In this document: positions 10,924 through 19,806 of the stretch, one piece after another
Position numbering within the stretch: the first letter of the stretch is position 1
Layout of the letters: each line of letters starts with the position of its first letter
Origin: Terriglobia bacterium
GTDB taxonomy: Bacteria; Acidobacteriota; Terriglobia; Terriglobales; Acidobacteriaceae
Length of the DNA stretch: 41,198 nucleotides
NCBI GenBank assembly: GCA_020073185.1
Contig: JAIQFT010000032.1
Span: 1 to 41,198, forward strand
Reading direction: 5' to 3'
Translations under genes and position numbers: made by a program
Notes under the pieces: model-generated
The model's database searches: none
What the model saw: the letters and a program-made list of their open reading frames with translations, nothing else
Told to the model about the DNA's origin: nothing

Positions 10924-12183
10924 TTACGTTCCGGTTTTGGCGCGTTGCAAGGTTGAGATGCGCAGGCGCTCGACGCGGCGGTCGGTGGACTGCAGCACTT
11001 CGAAGCGCAGACCCTCGGCGTTGATGACTTCACCGTGTTGCGGGATACGTCCGGCGATTTCGCTGGCCAACCCCGCGACGGTGGTGGCCTCGTGGCCTTC
11101 AAAGCGAACGCTGAACAGTTCATCGAGGCGGTCTACGTCCATGCTGCCGGGCACGATGTAGGAGTACTCGTTCTCGCGGACGATGTCGGTCTCGCGCTCG
11201 TCGCGAATCTCGCCAACGATCTCCTCCACCATGTCCTCGATGGTGACCAGGCCGGCGACGGCGCCGTATTCGTCGACGACGATCTCCATGCGAAGGTTGT
11301 CGCGCTGCATCTCGCGCAGCAAGTCGCTGACGCGCTTGCTCTCGGGGACGAACTTGACGTCGGTGCTCATCAACTGGGTGACGGTGCGGGTGCGCGCCTC
11401 GGTGTCGGGTACCTGGAGCAGGTCGCGGGCGTGCACGATGCCGACGATCTTGTCGATGGAGCCTTCAAACACGGGCACGCGTGAATACGGACGGGTGCGC
11501 AGCATTTCGGTGAGCTTCTCGATGGTCATATCGGCGGGCACGGCGAACATTTCGGGGCGCGGCTTCATGACCTCGCGCACCGTCTTGTCGCCGAACTCGA
11601 CGACAGACTGGATGAGGTCGCGGTCACTTTCCTCGATGATTCCTTCTTCCTGGCCGGCCTCAATGAAGGCGTCCATGGCTTCGGAGGGGCGCTCGGGCTG
11701 CGGCTCGGAGTGTTCTTTGGTGAGCGACGCGACCGAGATGCAGAAGCCGATCACCAGCGTTACAGGGAACACCAGGTACAGCAAGAGGCGGAGCGGGAGC
11801 GTGAACTTCGCCAGCCAAGCGCCGCGGGTGCGCGAGAAAAGCACGAACGGGAGCAGGCGGTTGAAGACGACGACGATCAGGACCATGGCCAACGCGGCTT
11901 GCACAATCTCCAGCGCCGACCATATGCCGTCGCGAAAGACGGTGAAGGCGACCAGCATGGCGATGGCGGCAGTTGTGATCTGCTCGAGTACGGCGACGGA
12001 GAGCGCGACGCGGTCGCGGTGCATCTTCAACCTGGGCTCGACCTGCTGCTCGAAGGCTTCGATATTTTCCTCAAATTCGCGCGAGAGAAACTTGCCGCGT
12101 TCGGTGCAAACGCGCTCGACGTAGGAGACGAGACCGAGAACGAACAGGAGAATGACGAAGACGACGGCGAGGGCGAGGGTCAT
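10924..12183 (-). CDS. CorC/HlyC-family (CNNM-like) protein with DUF21 and CBS domains
   Basis: A 419-residue inner-membrane protein of the CNNM/CorC type, linked to Mg2+/Co2+ efflux or resistance. Residues 1-170 form a DUF21-like region with four hydrophobic segments (about 2-20, 63-85, 90-112, 128-150). A linker carries EEGIIEESDRDLIQSVVEFGDKTVREVMKPR. Two CBS repeats (about 205-325, VFEGSIDKIVGIVHARDLL and VVDEYGAVAGLVTIEDMVEEIVGEI) are followed by a CorC_HlyC domain (about 335-412). Its ATG overlaps the ybeY stop by ATGA, so the two are translationally coupled, an arrangement found in many bacteria. Confidence 0.92.
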   Translation of the reverse strand: MTLALAVVFVILLFVLGLVSYVERVCTERGKFLSREFEENIEAFEQQVEPRLKMHRDRVALSVAVLEQITTAAIAMLVAFTVFRDGIWSALEIVQAALAMVLIVVVFNRLLPFVLFSRTRGAWLAKFTLPLRLLLYLVFPVTLVIGFCISVASLTKEHSEPQPERPSEAMDAFIEAGQEEGIIEESDRDLIQSVVEFGDKTVREVMKPRPEMFAVPADMTIEKLTEMLRTRPYSRVPVFEGSIDKIVGIVHARDLLQVPDTEARTRTVTQLMSTDVKFVPESKRVSDLLREMQRDNLRMEIVVDEYGAVAGLVTIEDMVEEIVGEIRDERETDIVRENEYSYIVPGSMDVDRLDELFSVRFEGHEATTVAGLASEIAGRIPQHGEVINAEGLRFEVLQSTDRRVERLRISTLQRAKTGT

Positions 12184-12692
12184 TGGACTCGCCTCCGGGG
12201 GTCGATGGTCGAGGGTCGACGGTCAACGGCTTCCGTCGCACGCGAGGGCGAGAGCGCTCCATCTTCGGTGCGGCGGATCAGGCCGTTGCTTAGGCCGAGT
12301 TCGCGGCGGAGGCGCTCTTCCTTGCGCGCCATCTGGCCGCGATCGGATTCGTGGTCGTAGCCGGCGAGATGGAGCATACCGTGGAGAATAAGGATCTTCA
12401 CCTCCTGCGCCAGTGTGTGCTGGTAGAGGCGGGCGTTGCGGGCGGCGATGTCGGCAGAGATGACGATGTCGCCAGAGAATTGGCGCGCGACGGCGGGGAT
12501 CGGCGGAAACGAGAGGACGTCGGTCGGCTTATCGATTCCGCGGAAACGGCGATTGAGGACGCGGAGGTTTCGGCTGGAGGTCAGCAGTACATTGGCTTGA
12601 CCGCGCAGACCAGCGGCCTTGCGCGCACGCTGGATGAAACGAGTCAGCGCGCTCTCGGAAACGCCCGGCGCCGCTTTCTTGATCATGACCAT
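12180..12692 (-). CDS. ybeY: Endoribonuclease YbeY
   Basis: A zinc-dependent enzyme for 16S rRNA 3' maturation and ribosome quality control. From ATG 12692 the protein has 170 residues; the zinc motif HGMLHLAGYDHE places His104, His108 and His114. The upstream strand VLLTSSRNLRVLNRRFRG and the T-D-V-L-S-F-P motif also match the family. I rejected the longer open frame because residues before M-V-M-I-K-K overlap the phoH 3' end and are unlike YbeY. The last about 18 residues (V-D-R-R-P-S-T-I-D-P-R-R-R) are encoded by a heptamer array and extend past the usual end. A strong hairpin lies directly 5' of the start codon. Confidence 0.93.
   Translation of the reverse strand: MVMIKKAAPGVSESALTRFIQRARKAAGLRGQANVLLTSSRNLRVLNRRFRGIDKPTDVLSFPPIPAVARQFSGDIVISADIAARNARLYQHTLAQEVKILILHGMLHLAGYDHESDRGQMARKEERLRRELGLSNGLIRRTEDGALSPSRATEAVDRRPSTIDPRRRVQ
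12200..12227. repeat. Four tandem heptamers GGTCGAT/GGTCGAG/GGTCGAC/GGTCAAC in the ybeY 3' end
   Basis: Positions 12200-12206, 12207-12213, 12214-12220 and 12221-12227 are GGTCGAT, GGTCGAG, GGTCGAC and GGTCAAC: strict 7-nt period, consensus GGTCGAN. The array lies inside the ybeY reading frame (minus strand) and ends about 20 bp before its stop codon. Confidence 0.95.
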
Positions 12693-12697
12693 AAAAG

Positions 12698-12727
12698 GAA
12701 ACGGGAGGGCACGTGCAGCCCTCCCGT
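12698..12727 (-). terminator. Perfect 9-bp GC hairpin with T-rich tail directly before the ybeY start
   Basis: On the minus strand, ACGGGAGGG (12727-12719), a 9-nt loop (CTGCACGTG) and CCCTCCCGT (12709-12701) form a perfect stem followed by TTCCTTTT and then the ybeY ATG at 12692. It has the form of an intrinsic terminator but lies inside the presumed phoH-ybeY operon, so it may be an attenuator, a 3'-end stabiliser for phoH mRNA, or a translational control of ybeY. Confidence 0.65.
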
Positions 12728-12741
12728 GACCACGAATCATT

Positions 12742-13803
12742 CTACTCTTCGACGTGCTCGGGAACCGTTTTCGGCTCCGGCGCGACTGCTTCCACCGGCG
12801 GTGGCGAGCCATTGCGGCCCGCCTTGCCGTTGATGGGCAGCACCATCTGGTCGCCATTCATGCGCGACTTGTAGTCGTCGTAGGCGCGGATGATGCGCTG
12901 CACCAGGTGGTGGCGGACCACGTCGCTTTCATCGAAGTGAACGAACGAAATCCCGTTGACGTTGCCCAGGATGTCCATCGCCTCCAACATGCCGCAGCGC
13001 TTGTTGGTAGGCAGGTCAATCTGAGTGATGTCGCCGGTGATGACCGCCTTGGAGTTGAAGCCGAGGCGGGTGACGAACATCTTCATCTGCTCGGAGGTGG
13101 TGTTCTGCGCCTCGTCGAGGATGATGAAGGAGTCATTGAGCGTGCGCCCGCGCATGAAGGCGATGGGCGCGATCTCGATGATGTTCTTCTCCAGGTAACG
13201 GTCGATCTTTTCGGGATCCATCATGTCGTAGAGCGCGTCATAGAGCGGGCGGAGATAGGGATCGACCTTCTCTTGCAGCGTGCCGGGGAGAAAGCCGAGG
13301 CGCTCGCCAGCCTCGACCGCGGGGCGCGCCAGGATGATGCGATTCACCTTTTTGCTGACGAGGGCGGAGATGGCCATGGCGACCGCGAGGTAGGTCTTGC
13401 CCGTGCCGGCCGGGCCGATGCCAAAAACCATGTCGTTCTTCTCGATCGCCTCCACGTAGCGGCGCTGGTTCAGGCTCTTGGGCTGGACGGTGCGCTTGCC
13501 GAAGGAGCGCTGGCGTCCGGCCTCTACCAGACCACGCAGGGTGGCGGTGGGATCGGAGGCCAGCACGCGCAGCATGGAGCCGAGGTCGCCATTATTGAAG
13601 ACGCAGCCAGTGCGCTGGAGGTGATCGAAGTCGGTGAAAACCTGCTCGGCGCGGGCGACGTCACGGGCCGCGCCTTCAATCTCGACGGATTCCGCCTTCA
13701 GGTCAATGGTGACGTTCAGGCCTGCTTCGAGGAGACGGAGATTTTCATCCCGAGTGCCGAACAGGGTTTCAATGTTCTGGGTGATCTCGATGTTTTTCTT
13801 CAT
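12742..13803 (-). CDS. phoH: PhoH-family ATPase (PhoH-like, YbeZ type)
   Basis: A 353-residue ATP-binding protein usually encoded next to ybeY and proposed to act with it in rRNA or RNA metabolism. Residues about 5-90 are an N-terminal KH-like/PhoH domain. The helicase-like ATPase core has Walker A GPAGTGKT (130-137) and Walker B IILDEAQ (227-233), with the family motifs [17 protein letters not shown] and [12 protein letters not shown]. The C-terminal 30 residues are Pro/Glu-rich and probably disordered. Gene order phoH-ybeY-corC-era is as expected. No SD is obvious; the 449-bp region upstream carries a possible promoter and palindrome. Confidence 0.94.
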
Positions 13804-14252: not shown

Positions 14253-14528
14253 ATGGCAAATCACTTCTCGGCCCTGAAACGCGCCCGGCAGACGGAAAAG
14301 CGCACCGCCGCCAATCGCGCCAACAAGTCGCGCCTGCGCAGCGCGCTGCGCAAATTCCGGACGGCGCTGAGCGCCGGCAATCGTGAACAGGCGGAAACGG
14401 GATATCGCGAGACGACATCCGTGCTGGACAAGGCGGTGCAGAAGGGCGTGCTGCACAAGAATACGGCATCACGGTATAAGTCGCGGCTGGGCAAGCGGCT
14501 GAACGCGGTGGGGAAAACAAGCTCTTAG
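14253..14528 (+). CDS. rpsT: 30S ribosomal protein S20
   Basis: A 91-residue basic helical protein, typical length for S20, which binds 16S rRNA early in 30S assembly. It begins [10 protein letters not shown] and has the conserved [18 protein letters not shown] and [22 protein letters not shown] motifs. The last two serine codons and the TAG stop are formed by a tandem AGCTCTT array. The gene has its own promoter and a clear terminator, and sits tail to tail with the NAT gene of the lptE-holA group; holA near rpsT is a common arrangement. Confidence 0.98.
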
Positions 14529-14641: not shown

Positions 14642-15469
14642 TCAGACGGCAGTGGTTTGAGCAGCGTCGAGGCGGATGCCGAAATACTGCTGCAGCGCGG
14701 TGTCGTACTGTTCTGTGCTGATGAGGGAGATTTCACGGCGGGTGGCACTTTCGGTTATCACCAGGCGCGCGTCGGTCAGGGTGACACGGCCCATAGGCGT
14801 CAGGATGCTGCAAACTCGGTTGCGCGTGAAATGCGACTGCGGCGAGGTCTGGTGATGGTGGCACATGGCGTAAAAATCCGAGATCTGCCGCGGCTGCAGC
14901 GTGAAGTCATAGAGCATTCTCCATTCGCAGGCTGAGTCGGTTTGCACCGCGACGCCGCGCTGGCTGCCGGGTTCGGGTGAGTAGCGCAGCACGCGCCAGC
15001 GGTCATCGCGAGTATCGAGGCAGTAGAAGACGTTGCGCTGATACTGTTCGGCGTTGGGCAACAGCGGGAGCGGCTCAATGAAAGACTCGCCAAATCCGAC
15101 GTCGGCGAGCCAGGGGGTTTCGAGGTCGACGCGCAGGGTGAGGTGGTCGAACTCGGGCCCGACGCGGTTCTCCTCGATGGGCACGCGGGCGGAGAACAGA
15201 GTTACCTTGAAACCGAGTTGTCCCAGGAGCGCGGCGAAGAGGCTGTTCAGCTCGTAACAGAAGCCGCCGCGGCGGTGGAGAACGATCTTGTCGTAGAGTC
15301 GCTCCTGGTCGAGGACGATGGGCACGCCGCGATGGACGTCGAGGTTTTCGAAGGGCACGGCGAGCAGGTGGGCGTAGTGAAGGGCACGGAGAGTTTCCAG
15401 CGTCGGCGCCAGCGGGCCGGAGTAGGAGATGCGGGCGAGATAGGAATCGAGCTTCAAGTTGAAGTTCAA
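14642..15469 (-). CDS. Arylamine N-acetyltransferase (NAT)
   Basis: Transfers acetyl from acetyl-CoA to arylamines or hydrazines through a cysteine intermediate. From TTG 15469 the protein has 275 residues, the normal NAT length. The catalytic triad is visible: Cys71 in RRGGFCYELN, His109 in EFDHLTLRV and Asp123 in LADVGFGES. The N-terminal L-D-S-Y-L-A-R-I-x-Y-x-G and PFENLDVHRG segments are diagnostic. The longer open frame overlaps holA and its extra residues are unlike NAT, so I chose TTG 15469, 1 nt after the holA stop. The start lies in a short repeat (AACTTGAACTTCAACTTGAAG). Confidence 0.92.
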   Translation of the reverse strand: MNFNLKLDSYLARISYSGPLAPTLETLRALHYAHLLAVPFENLDVHRGVPIVLDQERLYDKIVLHRRGGFCYELNSLFAALLGQLGFKVTLFSARVPIEENRVGPEFDHLTLRVDLETPWLADVGFGESFIEPLPLLPNAEQYQRNVFYCLDTRDDRWRVLRYSPEPGSQRGVAVQTDSACEWRMLYDFTLQPRQISDFYAMCHHHQTSPQSHFTRNRVCSILTPMGRVTLTDARLVITESATRREISLISTEQYDTALQQYFGIRLDAAQTTAV

Positions 15470-15472
15470 GTT
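15452..15472. repeat. 6/7-nt tandem repeat (AACTTGA/ACTTCA) at the holA-NAT junction
   Basis: On the minus strand AACTTGAACTTCAACTTGAAG covers the end of holA (TAA at 15473-15471) and the first NAT codons; TTG of the first unit is the proposed NAT start. The sequence is also partly self-complementary. Confidence 0.6.
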
Positions 15473-16595
15473 ATACCGGCAACTGCTGCTGTTCCCAGCC
15501 AGTTTCAGGCACTTGGGGTTCGGAACAAAGATCGAGGACGAGGCGCTCCAAGACCAGGCGCTTGCCCGGCGGGTTGGAGCGGAGGTCAAGGTCGGCGCGG
15601 GCAATCAGACGCAGGGCGCGCGTCAGTTCACGGCGCGATTTATAGCGACGCGCCTGGCGCAGGATGTCTTCGGCGGCGAACGGCGGTACGCGGAAGCCCT
15701 GCCACAGCGCCTGCCAGAGAGAGCGCGAGTCGCGAACGCGCTTTTCGAAAATCACCAGCATCTGGCGGAAAGTTTTGGCCAGCATGTAGAGGTGGCCGAT
15801 GGCGGCTTCTTCGCCTTCGCCGCTGGAGAGAATCGCCTCCAGGACGCCGAGGGCGCGCACGCGATCCTTGGCGGAGATAGCGTCGGTGAGGTCGTAGAGG
15901 GAGCGCTGCTTGGCGGCGAGCACCATGGTTTCCACGTCGCCGAGGGCGATCCGCTTTTTCGCGCCGACGTAGAGGATGAGCTTCTCCAGTTCGTTGGCGA
16001 CCAGCATCATGTCGCCGCCGAGCGCGTCAATGAGTTCGCGCGCGGCATCGTTGTCAACTTTCACGCCTTCGGCGGCGGCGGTCTCAATCGCCCAGCGCAC
16101 GGCCTCGCCTTCCTCGACACGCGCCAGCTCGACCATCCCGCAGTACTGGCCGAGAGTTTCGCGGATGCGCTCGTAGCGCTCGCGGTCGGTGAGTTCCATG
16201 CGGCGGACGTCGGCGGGAATGTTGATGTGGTCGGCGACAAAGATGAGCAGCGCATCGGGATTGGGATTGGCGAGGTAGTCTGCGATGGCCTTGAACTCGG
16301 CGTCGTGCGAGCCGCGGGTATAGAGCGCCTTGACGCCACGGATGAAAAACACCTGGAAGGGCGCCATCAGCGAGGGCGTGCGCGCGGCATCGAGGACTTC
16401 GACGAGCGGGGTTTCGGCGAGATCGAATTCGTGGAGCGAGAAGTCGCGGAGATCGGGCGGAACCAGGTGCTGGAGCACGGCTTCGCGGCATTGCTTCCGG
16501 AAAAAAGCTTCGTCGCCGACGAGCAGGTAGGCGGGCTTGAGCTTGCGCTGCTTAACCTCGGCGACAAATTTTTCCGCAGCGGCGAAGGCGCGCAT
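15471..16595 (-). CDS. holA: DNA polymerase III subunit delta
   Basis: The clamp-loader wrench subunit of the replicase. The 374-residue length is slightly above E. coli HolA (343). The opening K-P-A-Y-L-L-V-G-D-E-A-F-F-R-K-Q-C is the family's degenerate P-loop strand; later segments ADHINIPADVRRMEL, A-A-A-E-G-V-K-V-D-N-D-A-A-R-E-L-I-D-A-L-G-G-D-M-x-L and the C-terminal helical collar (AIGHLYMLAKTFRQML) fit HolA. Its ATG shares the A of the lptE stop (TGATG), so translation is coupled to lptE, the same pair as in gamma-proteobacteria. Confidence 0.92.
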   Translation of the reverse strand: MRAFAAAEKFVAEVKQRKLKPAYLLVGDEAFFRKQCREAVLQHLVPPDLRDFSLHEFDLAETPLVEVLDAARTPSLMAPFQVFFIRGVKALYTRGSHDAEFKAIADYLANPNPDALLIFVADHINIPADVRRMELTDRERYERIRETLGQYCGMVELARVEEGEAVRWAIETAAAEGVKVDNDAARELIDALGGDMMLVANELEKLILYVGAKKRIALGDVETMVLAAKQRSLYDLTDAISAKDRVRALGVLEAILSSGEGEEAAIGHLYMLAKTFRQMLVIFEKRVRDSRSLWQALWQGFRVPPFAAEDILRQARRYKSRRELTRALRLIARADLDLRSNPPGKRLVLERLVLDLCSEPQVPETGWEQQQLPV

Positions 16596-17207: not shown

Positions 17208-18266
17208 TCACTGCAACTTCCCTTTTGGCATAGCGGCCGCCATTTGCTGCGCGACATCGATGGCGTTGAGCGCGAGCACGCGCAGATTGTCGGCGGCGGC
17301 CCAGATCCAGAAGCCGGTCTCGCGCTGGGCGTCGGCGCGCACCCACACCAGCACTTCCTCCTGGCCGGCGGCGGCGACGTTGCTGGGCGACTCCTCGGAG
17401 ACGCGGGTGAGTTCGACGTGCTCGCCGGCAATCGCCTGCGACAGATCACCGATGGAGTGTGCCTGTTCCAGCTCAATGTAAAGCGAAAAGACATGTCCAT
17501 GGAAGATAGGGGCCTGTACCAGCATCACCGAAGGCACGGGCAGGACATTGGCGGTGATGGCGCGGTAGTGACTCAGGATGCGGCGTTCGGCGCTGTCGAG
17601 CGTGGGCGAGGAGTGCTCGCCGTAGCGCGGCAGTAGGTTGAAAGCGACCTGCGCGTCGAAAACCTGCTTCGGCAGTTCCTGGAAGGAGAGCAGGTTTACG
17701 GTCTGCTCGTGGAGTTCGTCCATGCCGGCGCGGCCGTGCTCGGAGGCGGGCTCAAAGATGGTGGCGACGGCGGAGCGCAGGCTCGCGACTTTCTGCGCGC
17801 GCGCAATCAGCAGCGTCAAAGCGACAGCGGCGGGATGCGCGGCGACCACGGGCGCGGGCTCGAGTTCAGGAATCTGCGCTTGGCGGAGTTCCCGCTCGAC
17901 CCACGGCGAGCGGATGCGCGCGCCGGGCACGTCCTCGAGGCCGTAGGAGAGGTCGACGATCATGCTGCCGGCCTGCTGCGCGATGCGCCAGTGCTTGCGG
18001 GTGAATTCCGGCTGCGAGGTGAAGAAGGTGAAATCCACATTCGCGAAATTTTCCGGGCGCACGCTCTGCACGAACGTAACTTCCTCGCCGACAGCTTCAA
18101 GCTGGCCGAGAGATTCGTCATCATCGAGCAGTTTGATATCCACGGCCGGGAAGCTGGTTTCGGGCAACACCTCGGCGAGTTCCTTGCCCTTGAGTGTACC
18201 CGCGCCAACAATGGCAACGCGGTAGATGCCGTTTTCGGATCTTCCGGTTTGGTGCGCGCGGTTCAT
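17208..18266 (-). CDS. Aspartate-semialdehyde dehydrogenase-like protein without the catalytic cysteine
   Basis: The 352-residue sequence has the two-domain layout of Asd/USG-1 proteins: an N-terminal Rossmann motif V-A-I-V-G-A-G-T-L-K-G-K-E-L (about 17-30) and a C-terminal dimerisation domain with GMDELHEQTVNLLSF, the FNLLPR strand and P-I-F-H-G-H. The active-site block, normally N-P-N-C-S-T, reads V-V-A-A-H-P-A-A-V-A-L: no Cys is present. The late K-G-A-A motif is also lost (D-N-L-R-V-L-A-L-N-A). It should not reduce aspartyl phosphate. It is coupled to pssA (4-bp overlap), last of the psd-pssA set. A regulatory or NAD(P)-binding role is possible; this is inference. Confidence 0.85.
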   Translation of the reverse strand: MNRAHQTGRSENGIYRVAIVGAGTLKGKELAEVLPETSFPAVDIKLLDDDESLGQLEAVGEEVTFVQSVRPENFANVDFTFFTSQPEFTRKHWRIAQQAGSMIVDLSYGLEDVPGARIRSPWVERELRQAQIPELEPAPVVAAHPAAVALTLLIARAQKVASLRSAVATIFEPASEHGRAGMDELHEQTVNLLSFQELPKQVFDAQVAFNLLPRYGEHSSPTLDSAERRILSHYRAITANVLPVPSVMLVQAPIFHGHVFSLYIELEQAHSIGDLSQAIAGEHVELTRVSEESPSNVAAAGQEEVLVWVRADAQRETGFWIWAAADNLRVLALNAIDVAQQMAAAMPKGKLQ

Positions 18267-19132
18267 CGTACGGGCGTAGCCTCCAGCGGCGGAGGCGGCG
18301 GGCTGCCGCGTCGGCGGAGAATGTACATCAGGCGCGCGAGCACACCCGACAGCATATAGAACAGCGCCAGCAAAAACAGGAAGTACTCGGAAAAATAGCG
18401 AATGCAGGCAATGACGCCGGCGACGATTACCACCACCCAGAAGGGACGGCGGCTGCGGAAGTCAATGTCCTTAAAGCTGTAGAAGCGCCAGGTGCTGATC
18501 ATCAGGTAGCCGGTGACGAAGACCAGTGCGGCCCAGATCAGACCCATCCACCAGGTCACGACAGGAACGCCGTCCGTGAAATGGACGACGGCGGCAATGA
18601 CACCGGCGCCGGCGGGAATCGGCATTCCGACAAAATACTTTTTGCCGGGGCGGCCAGGATTCGAGGGCTGCGGGTTTACCTGGATGTTAAAGCGGGCCAG
18701 GCGGCTGGCGCCGGCGACCAGGAACAAGAAAGTCGCAATCGCACCCAGTTGCACCACGCGGGCGATGAGATCGGCGCCGTTGAGCGGCGCGAGCAGGCGG
18801 AAGCCCCACATCCAGGCCAGAAACGCGGGCGCGACCCCAAAGGTGATGACGTCGGCGAGGGAATCAAACTCGCGGCCGAAATCGCTTACTGTGTTGGTCA
18901 TGCGCGCGATGCGGCCGTCGAGACCGTCGAAGACGATGGCGAAACCGATGGCCTTGGCGGCATTGTCGTAATGCCAGGGCTCGGCCGCCGAGCCCTGGAT
19001 GGAATGGTAAAGAGCGTAGTAGCCCAGAGCCATGTTGAGCGTGGTAAACAGCGAGGGCAGTAGATGGATGCCCTTGCGGAAACGGCGCGAGCGCGGCGGA
19101 CGGTCGTCGGCACGGCGGTATTCGGCAGTCAC
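18263..19132 (-). CDS. pssA: CDP-diacylglycerol-serine O-phosphatidyltransferase
   Basis: Makes phosphatidylserine from CDP-diacylglycerol and serine at the inner membrane. The 289-residue protein has the CDP-alcohol phosphotransferase motif [26 protein letters not shown] split over about residues 69-94 (D-G-x2-A-R form with the late G-x3-D-x3-D), and about seven hydrophobic helices. The N-terminus (to about 20) is Arg-rich and cytosolic. It overlaps psd upstream and the Asd-like gene downstream by 4 bp each, so the three are made as a unit. A basic Pro-rich tail ([10 protein letters not shown]) closes the protein. Confidence 0.95.
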
Positions 19133-19806
19133 CGGAGGACTCCCTTCTTGCGCTCTGGGTTTCGCGGCTCACGCTCCGGCGGCGCCGGCACGCATACGGG
19201 AGCGAGGGCAAGGATACTTGACCCGCCGGAAACATGCTGGCCGACTGTCACCTGCACGCTGGCAGCGGCGTCGAAGATGACGTCGCAGCGCGAACCAAAC
19301 TTGATCAGGCCGATGCGCTCGCCACGCGCGACCGCGTCGCCGACGCGCTTGGTGAAGACGATGCGTCGCGCGATCAGGCCGGCAATCTGCTTGAAGACGA
19401 CCGCCTGGCGGCCATCGTCCAGGGTCACGATGTTCTGCTCGTTGCAGTCAGCGCTCGCGGCGCCCATGGCGTTCTTGAACAGCCCCTTGCGGTATTGCAC
19501 ATCGCGGATGACGCCTCCGATGGGCGAGCGGTTGACGTGCACGTCAAAGACGCTGAGAAAGATGCTGATGCGGGTGCGCGACCGGCCATCCTGCTCGACG
19601 CTGACAATGTCGGTGACACGTCCGTCGCCGGGAGAGACGATCGCATCCTCGATGGCCGGAATCTGGCGCTCGGGGTCGCGGAAGAACCAGGCGCAGAATG
19701 CGCCAAACGCCAGCGGGATCACTGCCCATGGCGGACTGGCCAACCAGGCAATGAGCCCGGCGACAACCAGCGATGCGAGCGCGTAATAGTATCCGTCACG
19801 AACCAT
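19129..19806 (-). CDS. psd: Phosphatidylserine decarboxylase proenzyme (short form)
   Basis: Decarboxylates phosphatidylserine to phosphatidylethanolamine using a pyruvoyl group made by self-cleavage. The 225-residue sequence is the short PSD-A type: a hydrophobic N-terminal pair of segments (about 8-45), [10 protein letters not shown], then [23 protein letters not shown] and Y-x-x-G-x-F-x-N-A. The [12 protein letters not shown] segment and a GGSS site (in [10 protein letters not shown], about 194-197) fit the family; the serine to be converted lies here or in FGS. It overlaps pssA by 4 bp. A TATAAT lies only 11 bp upstream of the ATG, so the mRNA may be nearly leaderless. Confidence 0.93.

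What the first reader, a model, noticed from the sequence alone, without database searches (positions are those of the whole stretch)
17208..18266. Asd-like protein without its catalytic cysteine, coupled to phosphatidylserine synthesis
The block that should read N-P-N-C-S-T reads A-A-H-P-A-A-V-A-L, and K-G-A-A is lost, yet the Rossmann N-terminus and dimerisation domain are intact and the gene is coupled by 4-bp overlap to pssA and psd. A conserved pseudoenzyme in a lipid operon suggests a cofactor-sensing or scaffolding role (inference).
Basis: partly seen in the sequence, partly recalled or inferred. Interest (0 to 1): 0.55.

Follow-up and report, generated by a model that had tools for sequence, protein, structure and literature searches.

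The report
Cysteine-less Asd relative in lipid operon
A bacterium carries a protein shaped like the amino-acid enzyme Asd but stripped of its catalytic parts, and its relatives across the same phylum sit beside membrane-lipid genes, which points to a new but untested role in building the cell envelope.

Summary
The 352-aa minus-strand gene (17208-18266) has the Asd fold but no cysteine: A-A-H-P-A-A-V-A-L stands where Asd has N-P-N-C-S-T. Of six residues tested by mutagenesis in H. influenzae Asd it keeps one. NADP-contact motifs are changed too, so "Rossmann intact" is true of the fold only. A complete archaeal-type Asd lies elsewhere in the genome.

X belongs to a clade (here HP, for the His-Pro replacing Asn-Cys) found in 31 of 79 sampled families of the phylum, sister to the Cys-less Usg proteins. 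Of 132 distinct HP loci with both flanks, 83 follow pssA and 49 precede an msbA-type exporter or its usual follower yicC; none has neither. Seven loci keep the joined order psd-pssA-X-msbA-yicC. None of eight true-Asd loci of the phylum is so placed. dN/dS is 0.10.

This is a conserved, neofunctionalised pseudo-Asd tied to envelope-lipid genes. Cofactor sensing is weakened; an Asd partner is unlikely (18 of 50 genomes show no Asd above cut-off). Regulator or adaptor is my best guess. A new enzyme or an operon bystander stay open, because X persists without Psd/PssA in six genomes and without LpxC in two.

The parts
17208..18266 (-). X: 352-aa Cys-less Asd-fold protein (HP clade)
   Evidence: AlphaFold2 pLDDT 91.4, pTM 0.91; best solved relative 2hjs, USG-1 homolog
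17817..17843 (-). Codons 142-150, AAHPAAVAL, in place of NPNCST; H144 replaces Asn135 and P145 replaces the catalytic Cys136 (H. influenzae numbering)
   Evidence: Pro in 139 of 146 HP rows, Cys in 24 of 24 true Asd
17499..17504 (-). F255-H256, Phe-His two residues before the acid-base His position; the His is specific to the clade
   Evidence: F in 146 of 146, H in 142 of 146; no H there in 24 true Asd or 4 Usg
17262..17291 (-). DNLRVLALNA, in place of D(N/Q)xxKGAALNA, one residue shorter
18186..18206 (-). Codons 21-27, altered dinucleotide loop G-A-G-T-L-K-G (second Gly of GxxGxxG is Thr)
   Evidence: S88 T54 in 146 HP rows, G in 18 of 18 Asd and 4 of 4 Usg
18263..19132 (-). pssA, CDP-diacylglycerol--serine O-phosphatidyltransferase, 4-nt overlap with X
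   Evidence: TIGR00473 107.2 bits, cut-off 107; PF01066 71 bits
19129..19806 (-). psd, phosphatidylserine decarboxylase, 4-nt overlap with pssA
   Evidence: PF02666 143.6 bits
16595..17119 (-). lptE, LPS-assembly lipoprotein, next gene downstream
   Evidence: PF04390 52.3 bits
15471..16595 (-). holA, DNA polymerase III delta, overlaps lptE by 1 nt
   Evidence: TIGR01128 203.5 bits

Best explanation
X is a neofunctionalised pseudo-Asd: a soluble Asd-fold protein that should not be able to carry out the Asd reaction and whose old active-site region has been rebuilt around a conserved His-Pro and Phe-His. It is encoded with membrane-lipid genes (psd-pssA-X, or X-msbA, or all four together) and most likely acts as a non-catalytic ligand-binding regulator or adaptor in envelope-lipid supply. 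Shown: predicted fold, loss of catalytic and substrate residues, purifying selection in one gene pair, single clade, gene linkage. Inferred: loss of activity, dimer, ligand binding, and a regulatory role in lipid supply.
For: Active site: of the six residues whose mutation cripples H. influenzae Asd (C136, R103, E243, K246, R270, H277; PMC3276109 Table 1, seen as a passage) the window protein keeps one (H277); 85 of 146 HP rows keep none, 58 keep one, 3 keep two, against six of six in 24 of 24 true Asd. New constants there: P145 139, H144 134, H256 142, P173 146, F255 146, each of 146. Selection: dN/dS 0.105 (NG86, one same-genus pair), near pssA 0.093 and holA 0.113, below tsaB 0.163, psd 0.215 and lptE 0.238. 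One clade, 100/100. Linkage: 132 distinct loci with both flanks, 83 with pssA upstream, 49 with msbA (30) or yicC (19) downstream and no pssA, none with neither; 31 of 31 further divergent members lie next to pssA, six of these also before msbA. True Asd copies of the phylum: 0 of 6 with either neighbour in the same test, and none in L104, L105. X is present in 18 of 50 genomes without any Asd above cut-off, so it does not serve as an Asd subunit there.
Against: X is kept without a Psd match and without a PssA above cut-off (best 29 bits, cut-off 107) in six genomes, and without LpxC in two others that have PssA and Psd (G122, G227); so neither partner alone explains its retention, and joint transcription could be historical. 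No physical interaction, ligand or phenotype was tested. 195 of 297 phylum genomes show no HP member at the threshold used (counting four true-Asd-only matches as absent), so the role is replaceable or the protein undetected. Among 31 divergent members the new residues are less constant (H144 18, P145 23, H256 25) and R270 is Arg in 10.
Confidence: 0.42

Rival explanations
1. X is an enzyme with new chemistry: the rebuilt pocket (H144, H256, Tyr/His258, Glu/Gln172) binds a lipid head-group precursor or another small molecule and acts without a Cys nucleophile, perhaps with NAD.
For: Polar residues at the old active site are nearly as constant as in a working one. An Asp at position 48 (130 of 146) and Glu instead of Arg at position 51 (112 of 146) would suit NAD rather than NADP (the NAD reading is inference).
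Against: The SGxG nicotinamide motif is absent in 146 of 146 and 31 of 31; the second Gly of the phosphate loop is Ser/Thr in 142 of 146; in the 31 divergent members H144 is kept in 18, H256 in 25 and the Asp at 48 in only 8.
Confidence: 0.28
2. Bystander: X does something unrelated to lipids and merely stayed in an ancestral operon psd-pssA-X-msbA-yicC-gmk-coaBC, which also holds unrelated housekeeping genes.
For: The operon also carries yicC, gmk and coaBC; X outlives psd/pssA in six genomes and the msbA neighbour in others.
Against: Where the joined order is broken X stays next to pssA or to msbA or its follower yicC; no locus of 132 lost both sides. In 82 of 132 loci X keeps pssA with no msbA or yicC next to it.
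Confidence: 0.2
3. X is a still-active aspartate-semialdehyde dehydrogenase with an unusual active site.
For: Same fold as Asd; PF02774 and PF01118 above cut-off.
Against: No Cys at all; C136S alone leaves under 0.01% activity (PMC3276109 Table 1); five of six key residues changed; a complete Asd sits elsewhere in the genome.
Confidence: 0.02
4. X is a partner subunit or regulator of the true Asd (pseudoenzyme and enzyme pair).
For: In 32 of 50 X-bearing genomes a complete Asd is present (29 asd_EA, 3 asd_B).
Against: 18 of 50 have no Asd above cut-off yet keep X (these 18 assemblies are listed as 89-100% complete). The window's Asd is of another subtype (asd_EA), so a mixed dimer is unlikely (inference).
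Confidence: 0.04

Closest known systems
Usg / USG-1 (E. coli b2319; P. aeruginosa homolog, PDB 2hjs; NCBIfam PRK05671/NF004224)
   Same: Asd-fold paralogue without the catalytic Cys (0 of 4 rows); in P. aeruginosa it lies next to a genuine asd; nearest solved structure (Foldseek TM 0.83, VIA Z 37.7); R270 replaced by Gln in 4 of 4; sister group in the tree (97/95).
   Different: Own clade (100/100); Usg keeps the GxxGxxG loop (4 of 4) and E243 and H277 in 3 of 4, X keeps of these only H277; Usg lacks the His-Pro, the His of Phe-His and P173; its neighbours are pdxB/truA/dedA in E. coli and leuB-asd/fimV/truA in P. aeruginosa, not psd-pssA or msbA; X scores 153 bits against the equivalog cut-off 284.
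Bacterial aspartate-semialdehyde dehydrogenase (asd_B, TIGR01296)
   Same: Whole-length fold and dimerisation domain.
   Different: 112 bits against cut-off 324; catalytic Cys and four further key residues changed; SGxG lost.
Archaeal/fungal-type Asd (asd_EA, TIGR00978), the Asd of this genome
   Same: Same superfamily.
   Different: 11 bits for X against cut-off 301; separate gene at G000:C18 with NPNCSA.

Membership tests
Aspartate-semialdehyde dehydrogenase (enzyme) | Cys nucleophile in NPNC(S/T) | tested here: not met
   P145 in the window; Cys absent from the whole protein; 0 of 146 HP rows and 1 of 31 divergent rows (L256) have Cys in that column
Aspartate-semialdehyde dehydrogenase (enzyme) | R103, E243, K246, R270, H277 (H. 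influenzae numbering) | tested here: not met
   Window has E, A, R, Q, H; only the His is kept
Aspartate-semialdehyde dehydrogenase (enzyme) | SGxG contact to nicotinamide | tested here: not met
   S-E-H-G in the window; 0 of 146 HP, 24 of 24 Asd
Aspartate-semialdehyde dehydrogenase (enzyme) | Model score above curated cut-off (asd_B 324.2, asd_EA 301.2) | tested here: not met
   111.7 and 11.1 bits
Asd-fold superfamily (PF01118 + PF02774) | Both domains above gathering score and the whole fold | tested here: met
   34.2 and 73.4 bits, cut-offs 26 and 26; model pLDDT 91.4; VIA Z 37.6 to S. pneumoniae Asd-NADP
Asd-fold superfamily (PF01118 + PF02774) | Homodimer | not testable with these tools
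   Only single chains can be modelled
Usg (PRK05671) | Equivalog score 284 | tested here: not met
   153.4 bits, the best NCBIfam hit all the same
Usg (PRK05671) | Falls inside the Usg clade | tested here: not met
   Separate clades, HP 100/100, Usg 97/92, together split from Asd at 97/95 on the unrooted tree (only four Usg rows, all Gammaproteobacteria)
Usg (PRK05671) | Neighbour of truA | tested here: not met
   psd-pssA upstream, lptE-holA downstream
HP clade (described here) | His-Pro for Asn-Cys, Phe-His before the acid-base position, pssA or msbA neighbour | tested here: met
   H144-P145, F255-H256, pssA 4-nt overlap

The most novel reading that the evidence does not exclude
X is an unrecognised control factor of envelope building in Acidobacteriota: an Asd fold turned into a sensor (of a head-group precursor such as serine, of a CDP-lipid, or of NAD) that balances phosphatidylethanolamine synthesis (PssA/Psd) against lipid export (MsbA, LptE), as the joined operon psd-pssA-X-msbA suggests.
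Probability: 0.25. Interest if true: 0.78.

Novelty: new variant of a known kind. Interest (0 to 1): 0.5.

Why it matters
The five best NCBIfam models for X are all named aspartate-semialdehyde dehydrogenase, though X is under every cut-off, and Usg records are named as dehydrogenases; how pipelines name HP proteins was not checked. If they are called Asd, genomes without one would be credited with lysine and threonine synthesis: in 18 of 50 X-bearing genomes no Asd reached its cut-off. If the lipid role holds, a large phylum has a control step between phospholipid synthesis and lipid export that I know of in no model organism (recalled), and the same experiment would give the Usg proteins a first hypothesis.

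Tried and rejected
Rejected: reading on the plus strand (stop in frame); a shifted Cys (none in the protein; 10 of 146 HP rows have some Cys within six columns of the site, none at it); X as a true Asd or as an Asd partner (see rivals); decay of a pseudogene (dN/dS, length and fold kept).

Led nowhere: I found no paper on this protein. Searches (listings only; open-licence PubMed Central, so subscription journals are not covered) gave one relevant Usg paper (PMC6358828: start of the abstract and one passage, which only repeats the annotation) and one on Asd catalysis (PMC3276109: abstract, outline and twelve passages). The clear out-of-phylum ones (L191, L193, L196-L199, L204) are true Asd with NPNC, SPNC or CPNC; two HP loci with labels of other groups (L150 Clostridiales, L187 Acidimicrobiia) I take for mislabelled bins, untested. 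So restriction to the phylum is likely, not proved. The VIA table is a second look at Foldseek's own matches, not a search.

Weak points in my counts: start-codon choice favours short gaps, so the common 4-nt overlap there is only suggestive (the window's own overlap is exact). Removal of duplicate loci (159 to 147) rests on identical X stretches. Neighbours were found by tblastn with queries from this phylum at E <= 1e-4, so distant pssA or msbA genes beside true Asd could be missed; no msbA query was used. Rows dropped: L104, L105 (true Asd), L033, L052, L054, L087, L106 (odd length, internal stop or ambiguity) and repeats L062-L081; also L127, L145, L177, L179, L180, L182, L188 (repeats or fragments), identical rows and rows with X. 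The tree used 37 HP rows of 146. dN/dS is one pair. The asd absence in 18 genomes rests on two models (TIGR00978, TIGR01296); the separate E. coli-type model was not run.

Full report
What is there. The interval 17208-18266 is one ORF on the minus strand, 352 aa from ATG. It follows psd (19129-19806) and pssA (18263-19132) with 4-nt overlaps at both joints and is followed by lptE and holA. Pfam finds both Asd domains, the dimerisation domain well above cut-off (73 bits) and the NAD domain nearer to it (34 bits; both cut-offs 26). The best NCBIfam model is PRK05671 at 153 bits, far under its cut-off of 284; asd_B gives 112 against 324. The nearest solved chain by sequence is 2hjs, the P. aeruginosa USG-1 homolog.

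Active site. The protein holds no cysteine. In an alignment of 146 HP-clade rows, 4 Usg and 18 true Asd, the catalytic Cys column is Pro 139, Ala 4, Ser 3 in HP and Cys in all true Asd; the Asn before it is His in 134. Published mutagenesis (PMC3276109, Table 1, seen as a passage) gives C136S under 0.01% activity, H277N 1%, R270K 0.1%, E243D 1.2%, K246R 3.3%, R103L 0.07%. At C136, H277, R270, E243, K246 and R103 the window protein has Pro, His, Gln, Ala, Arg and Glu. Of the 146 HP rows 85 keep none of the six, 58 keep one (mostly the His), 3 keep two; 31 more divergent rows keep 0 (8), 1 (14), 2 (6) or 3 (3); 24 of 24 true Asd keep all. Against a clean picture: one divergent row (L256) has a Cys in the column, and R270 is Arg in 10 of the 31.

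Cofactor site. The same review says that SGxG contacts the nicotinamide and that Arg, Ser and Thr bind the 2'-phosphate in V. cholerae Asd. SGxG is present in 24 of 24 Asd, 1 of 4 Usg, 0 of 146 and 0 of 31 HP rows. The second Gly of GxxGxxG is Ser or Thr in 142 of 146 HP rows; position 48 is Asp in 130 (Ala in 14 of 18 Asd) and position 51 Glu in 112 (Arg in 14 of 18 Asd). In the 31 divergent rows the loop position is Ser or Thr in 24, but Asp48 stands in only 8. So the fold is intact but NADP binding is unlikely; NAD or no dinucleotide remains possible (inference).

What replaced it. P173 and F255 are invariant (146 of 146), H256 142, P145 139, H144 134 of 146; H256 and P173 are found in none of 24 true Asd or 4 Usg rows, while F255 also occurs in some Asd. 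In the divergent set F255 is 31 of 31, P173 30, H256 25, P145 23, H144 18 of 31. By alignment these changes fall at or next to the old active-site positions and are shared by the clade, which fits rebuilding, not decay. The AlphaFold2 model is confident (pLDDT 91.4, pTM 0.91, 59 rows) and matches Asd structures over the full length (2hjs TM 0.83, Z 37.7; S. pneumoniae Asd-NADP Z 37.6). I had no coordinates, so side-chain distances were not measured.

Second Asd. The genome has three PF02774 genes: X, an argC-like gene and an archaeal-type Asd (asd_EA, 427 bits, cut-off 301; NPNCSA). Among 50 X-bearing genomes 29 have asd_EA and 3 others asd_B above cut-off; 18 have neither. X is therefore kept where no Asd is found.

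Spread. Same family: 58 of 60 genomes, 48 of 48 near-complete ones. Phylum: 106 of 297 at E <= 1e-20 with the clade profile; four of these (G080, G102, G289, G305) matched only through a true Asd, leaving 102 genomes in 31 of the 79 numbered families. I read the X sequence of all but three of the 102 (G031, G257, G339), and at least one in every family of the 31. Tree: HP 100/100, Usg 97/92, Asd 97/95, with HP plus Usg split from Asd at 97/95, unrooted.

Gene context. Of 147 distinct HP loci, 132 had 900 bases on both sides: pssA upstream in 83 (32 with lptE downstream, 50 with another follower or none, 1 with msbA), msbA downstream without pssA in 30, yicC downstream without msbA or pssA in 19, neither in 0. 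The msbA-type gene of L127 scores 551 bits on MsbA_lipidA (cut-off 602, best of 166 families), so it is MsbA-like rather than proven MsbA. All 31 divergent members lie next to pssA and six (L239, L240, L247, L250, L253, L254) have psd-pssA-X-msbA-yicC, as does L098. Six true Asd in the same test have neither neighbour; nor have L104 and L105. Eight further true Asd loci, seven from other phyla, showed no psd, pssA, lptE or holA (no msbA query). The simplest history (inference) is an ancestral psd-pssA-X-msbA-yicC-gmk operon that lost its right half in Terriglobia-type lineages and its left half in Aminicenantes.

Against a simple partner model. Six X-bearing genomes give no Psd match (G139, G188, G196, G235, G332, G338) and no PssA above cut-off (best 29 bits), but have LpxC. 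G122 and G227 have PssA, Psd and X but no LpxC match. X thus survives the loss of either side. This is the main result against a dedicated PssA or MsbA subunit, and it keeps the bystander reading alive.

Selection. Against the same-genus genome (L062), dN/dS is 0.105 for X, 0.093 pssA, 0.215 psd, 0.238 lptE, 0.113 holA, 0.163 tsaB (NG86).

Verdict. Observation confirmed; interpretation partly supported. A conserved pseudo-Asd clade bound to envelope-lipid genes, sister to Usg. Mechanism: regulator or adaptor 0.42, new enzyme 0.28, bystander 0.20, others small.

Noticed in passing
L239, L240, L247, L250, L253, L254, L098: A joined operon psd-pssA-X-msbA-yicC (with gmk and coaBC where the stretch reaches) in three families of the phylum (f6, f51, f56), linking phospholipid synthesis, lipid export and nucleotide/CoA genes.
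   Followed up: partly
L122 4637-5650; L123 3983-4993: Usg lacks the catalytic Cys in both E. coli and P. aeruginosa (AVPDSLTS; SSPCAVAA) and keeps GxxGxxG; the records name it a (putative) dehydrogenase and I found no tested function.
   Followed up: partly
G227, G264, G219, G164, G272, G122, G139, G332, G256, G156, G295, G188, G338 and others: 18 of 50 genomes show no Asd above cut-off; whether they make lysine, threonine or DAP by another way was not checked.
   Followed up: no
window 10924-13803, minus: PhoH-like, YbeY and CorC/HlyC-type genes in a row (PF02562, PF02130, PF03471).
   Followed up: no
window 14642-15604, minus: Arylamine N-acetyltransferase-type gene (PF00797, 230 bits) between a short plus-strand ORF 14253-14528 that looks like ribosomal protein S20 (recalled, not searched) and holA.
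   Followed up: no
L093, L095-L097, L099, L100, L109, L114, L117: Aminicenantes-type loci where no msbA lies between X and yicC; two genomes of this type (G122, G227) also give no LpxC match, which suggests loss of LPS together with msbA.
   Followed up: partly
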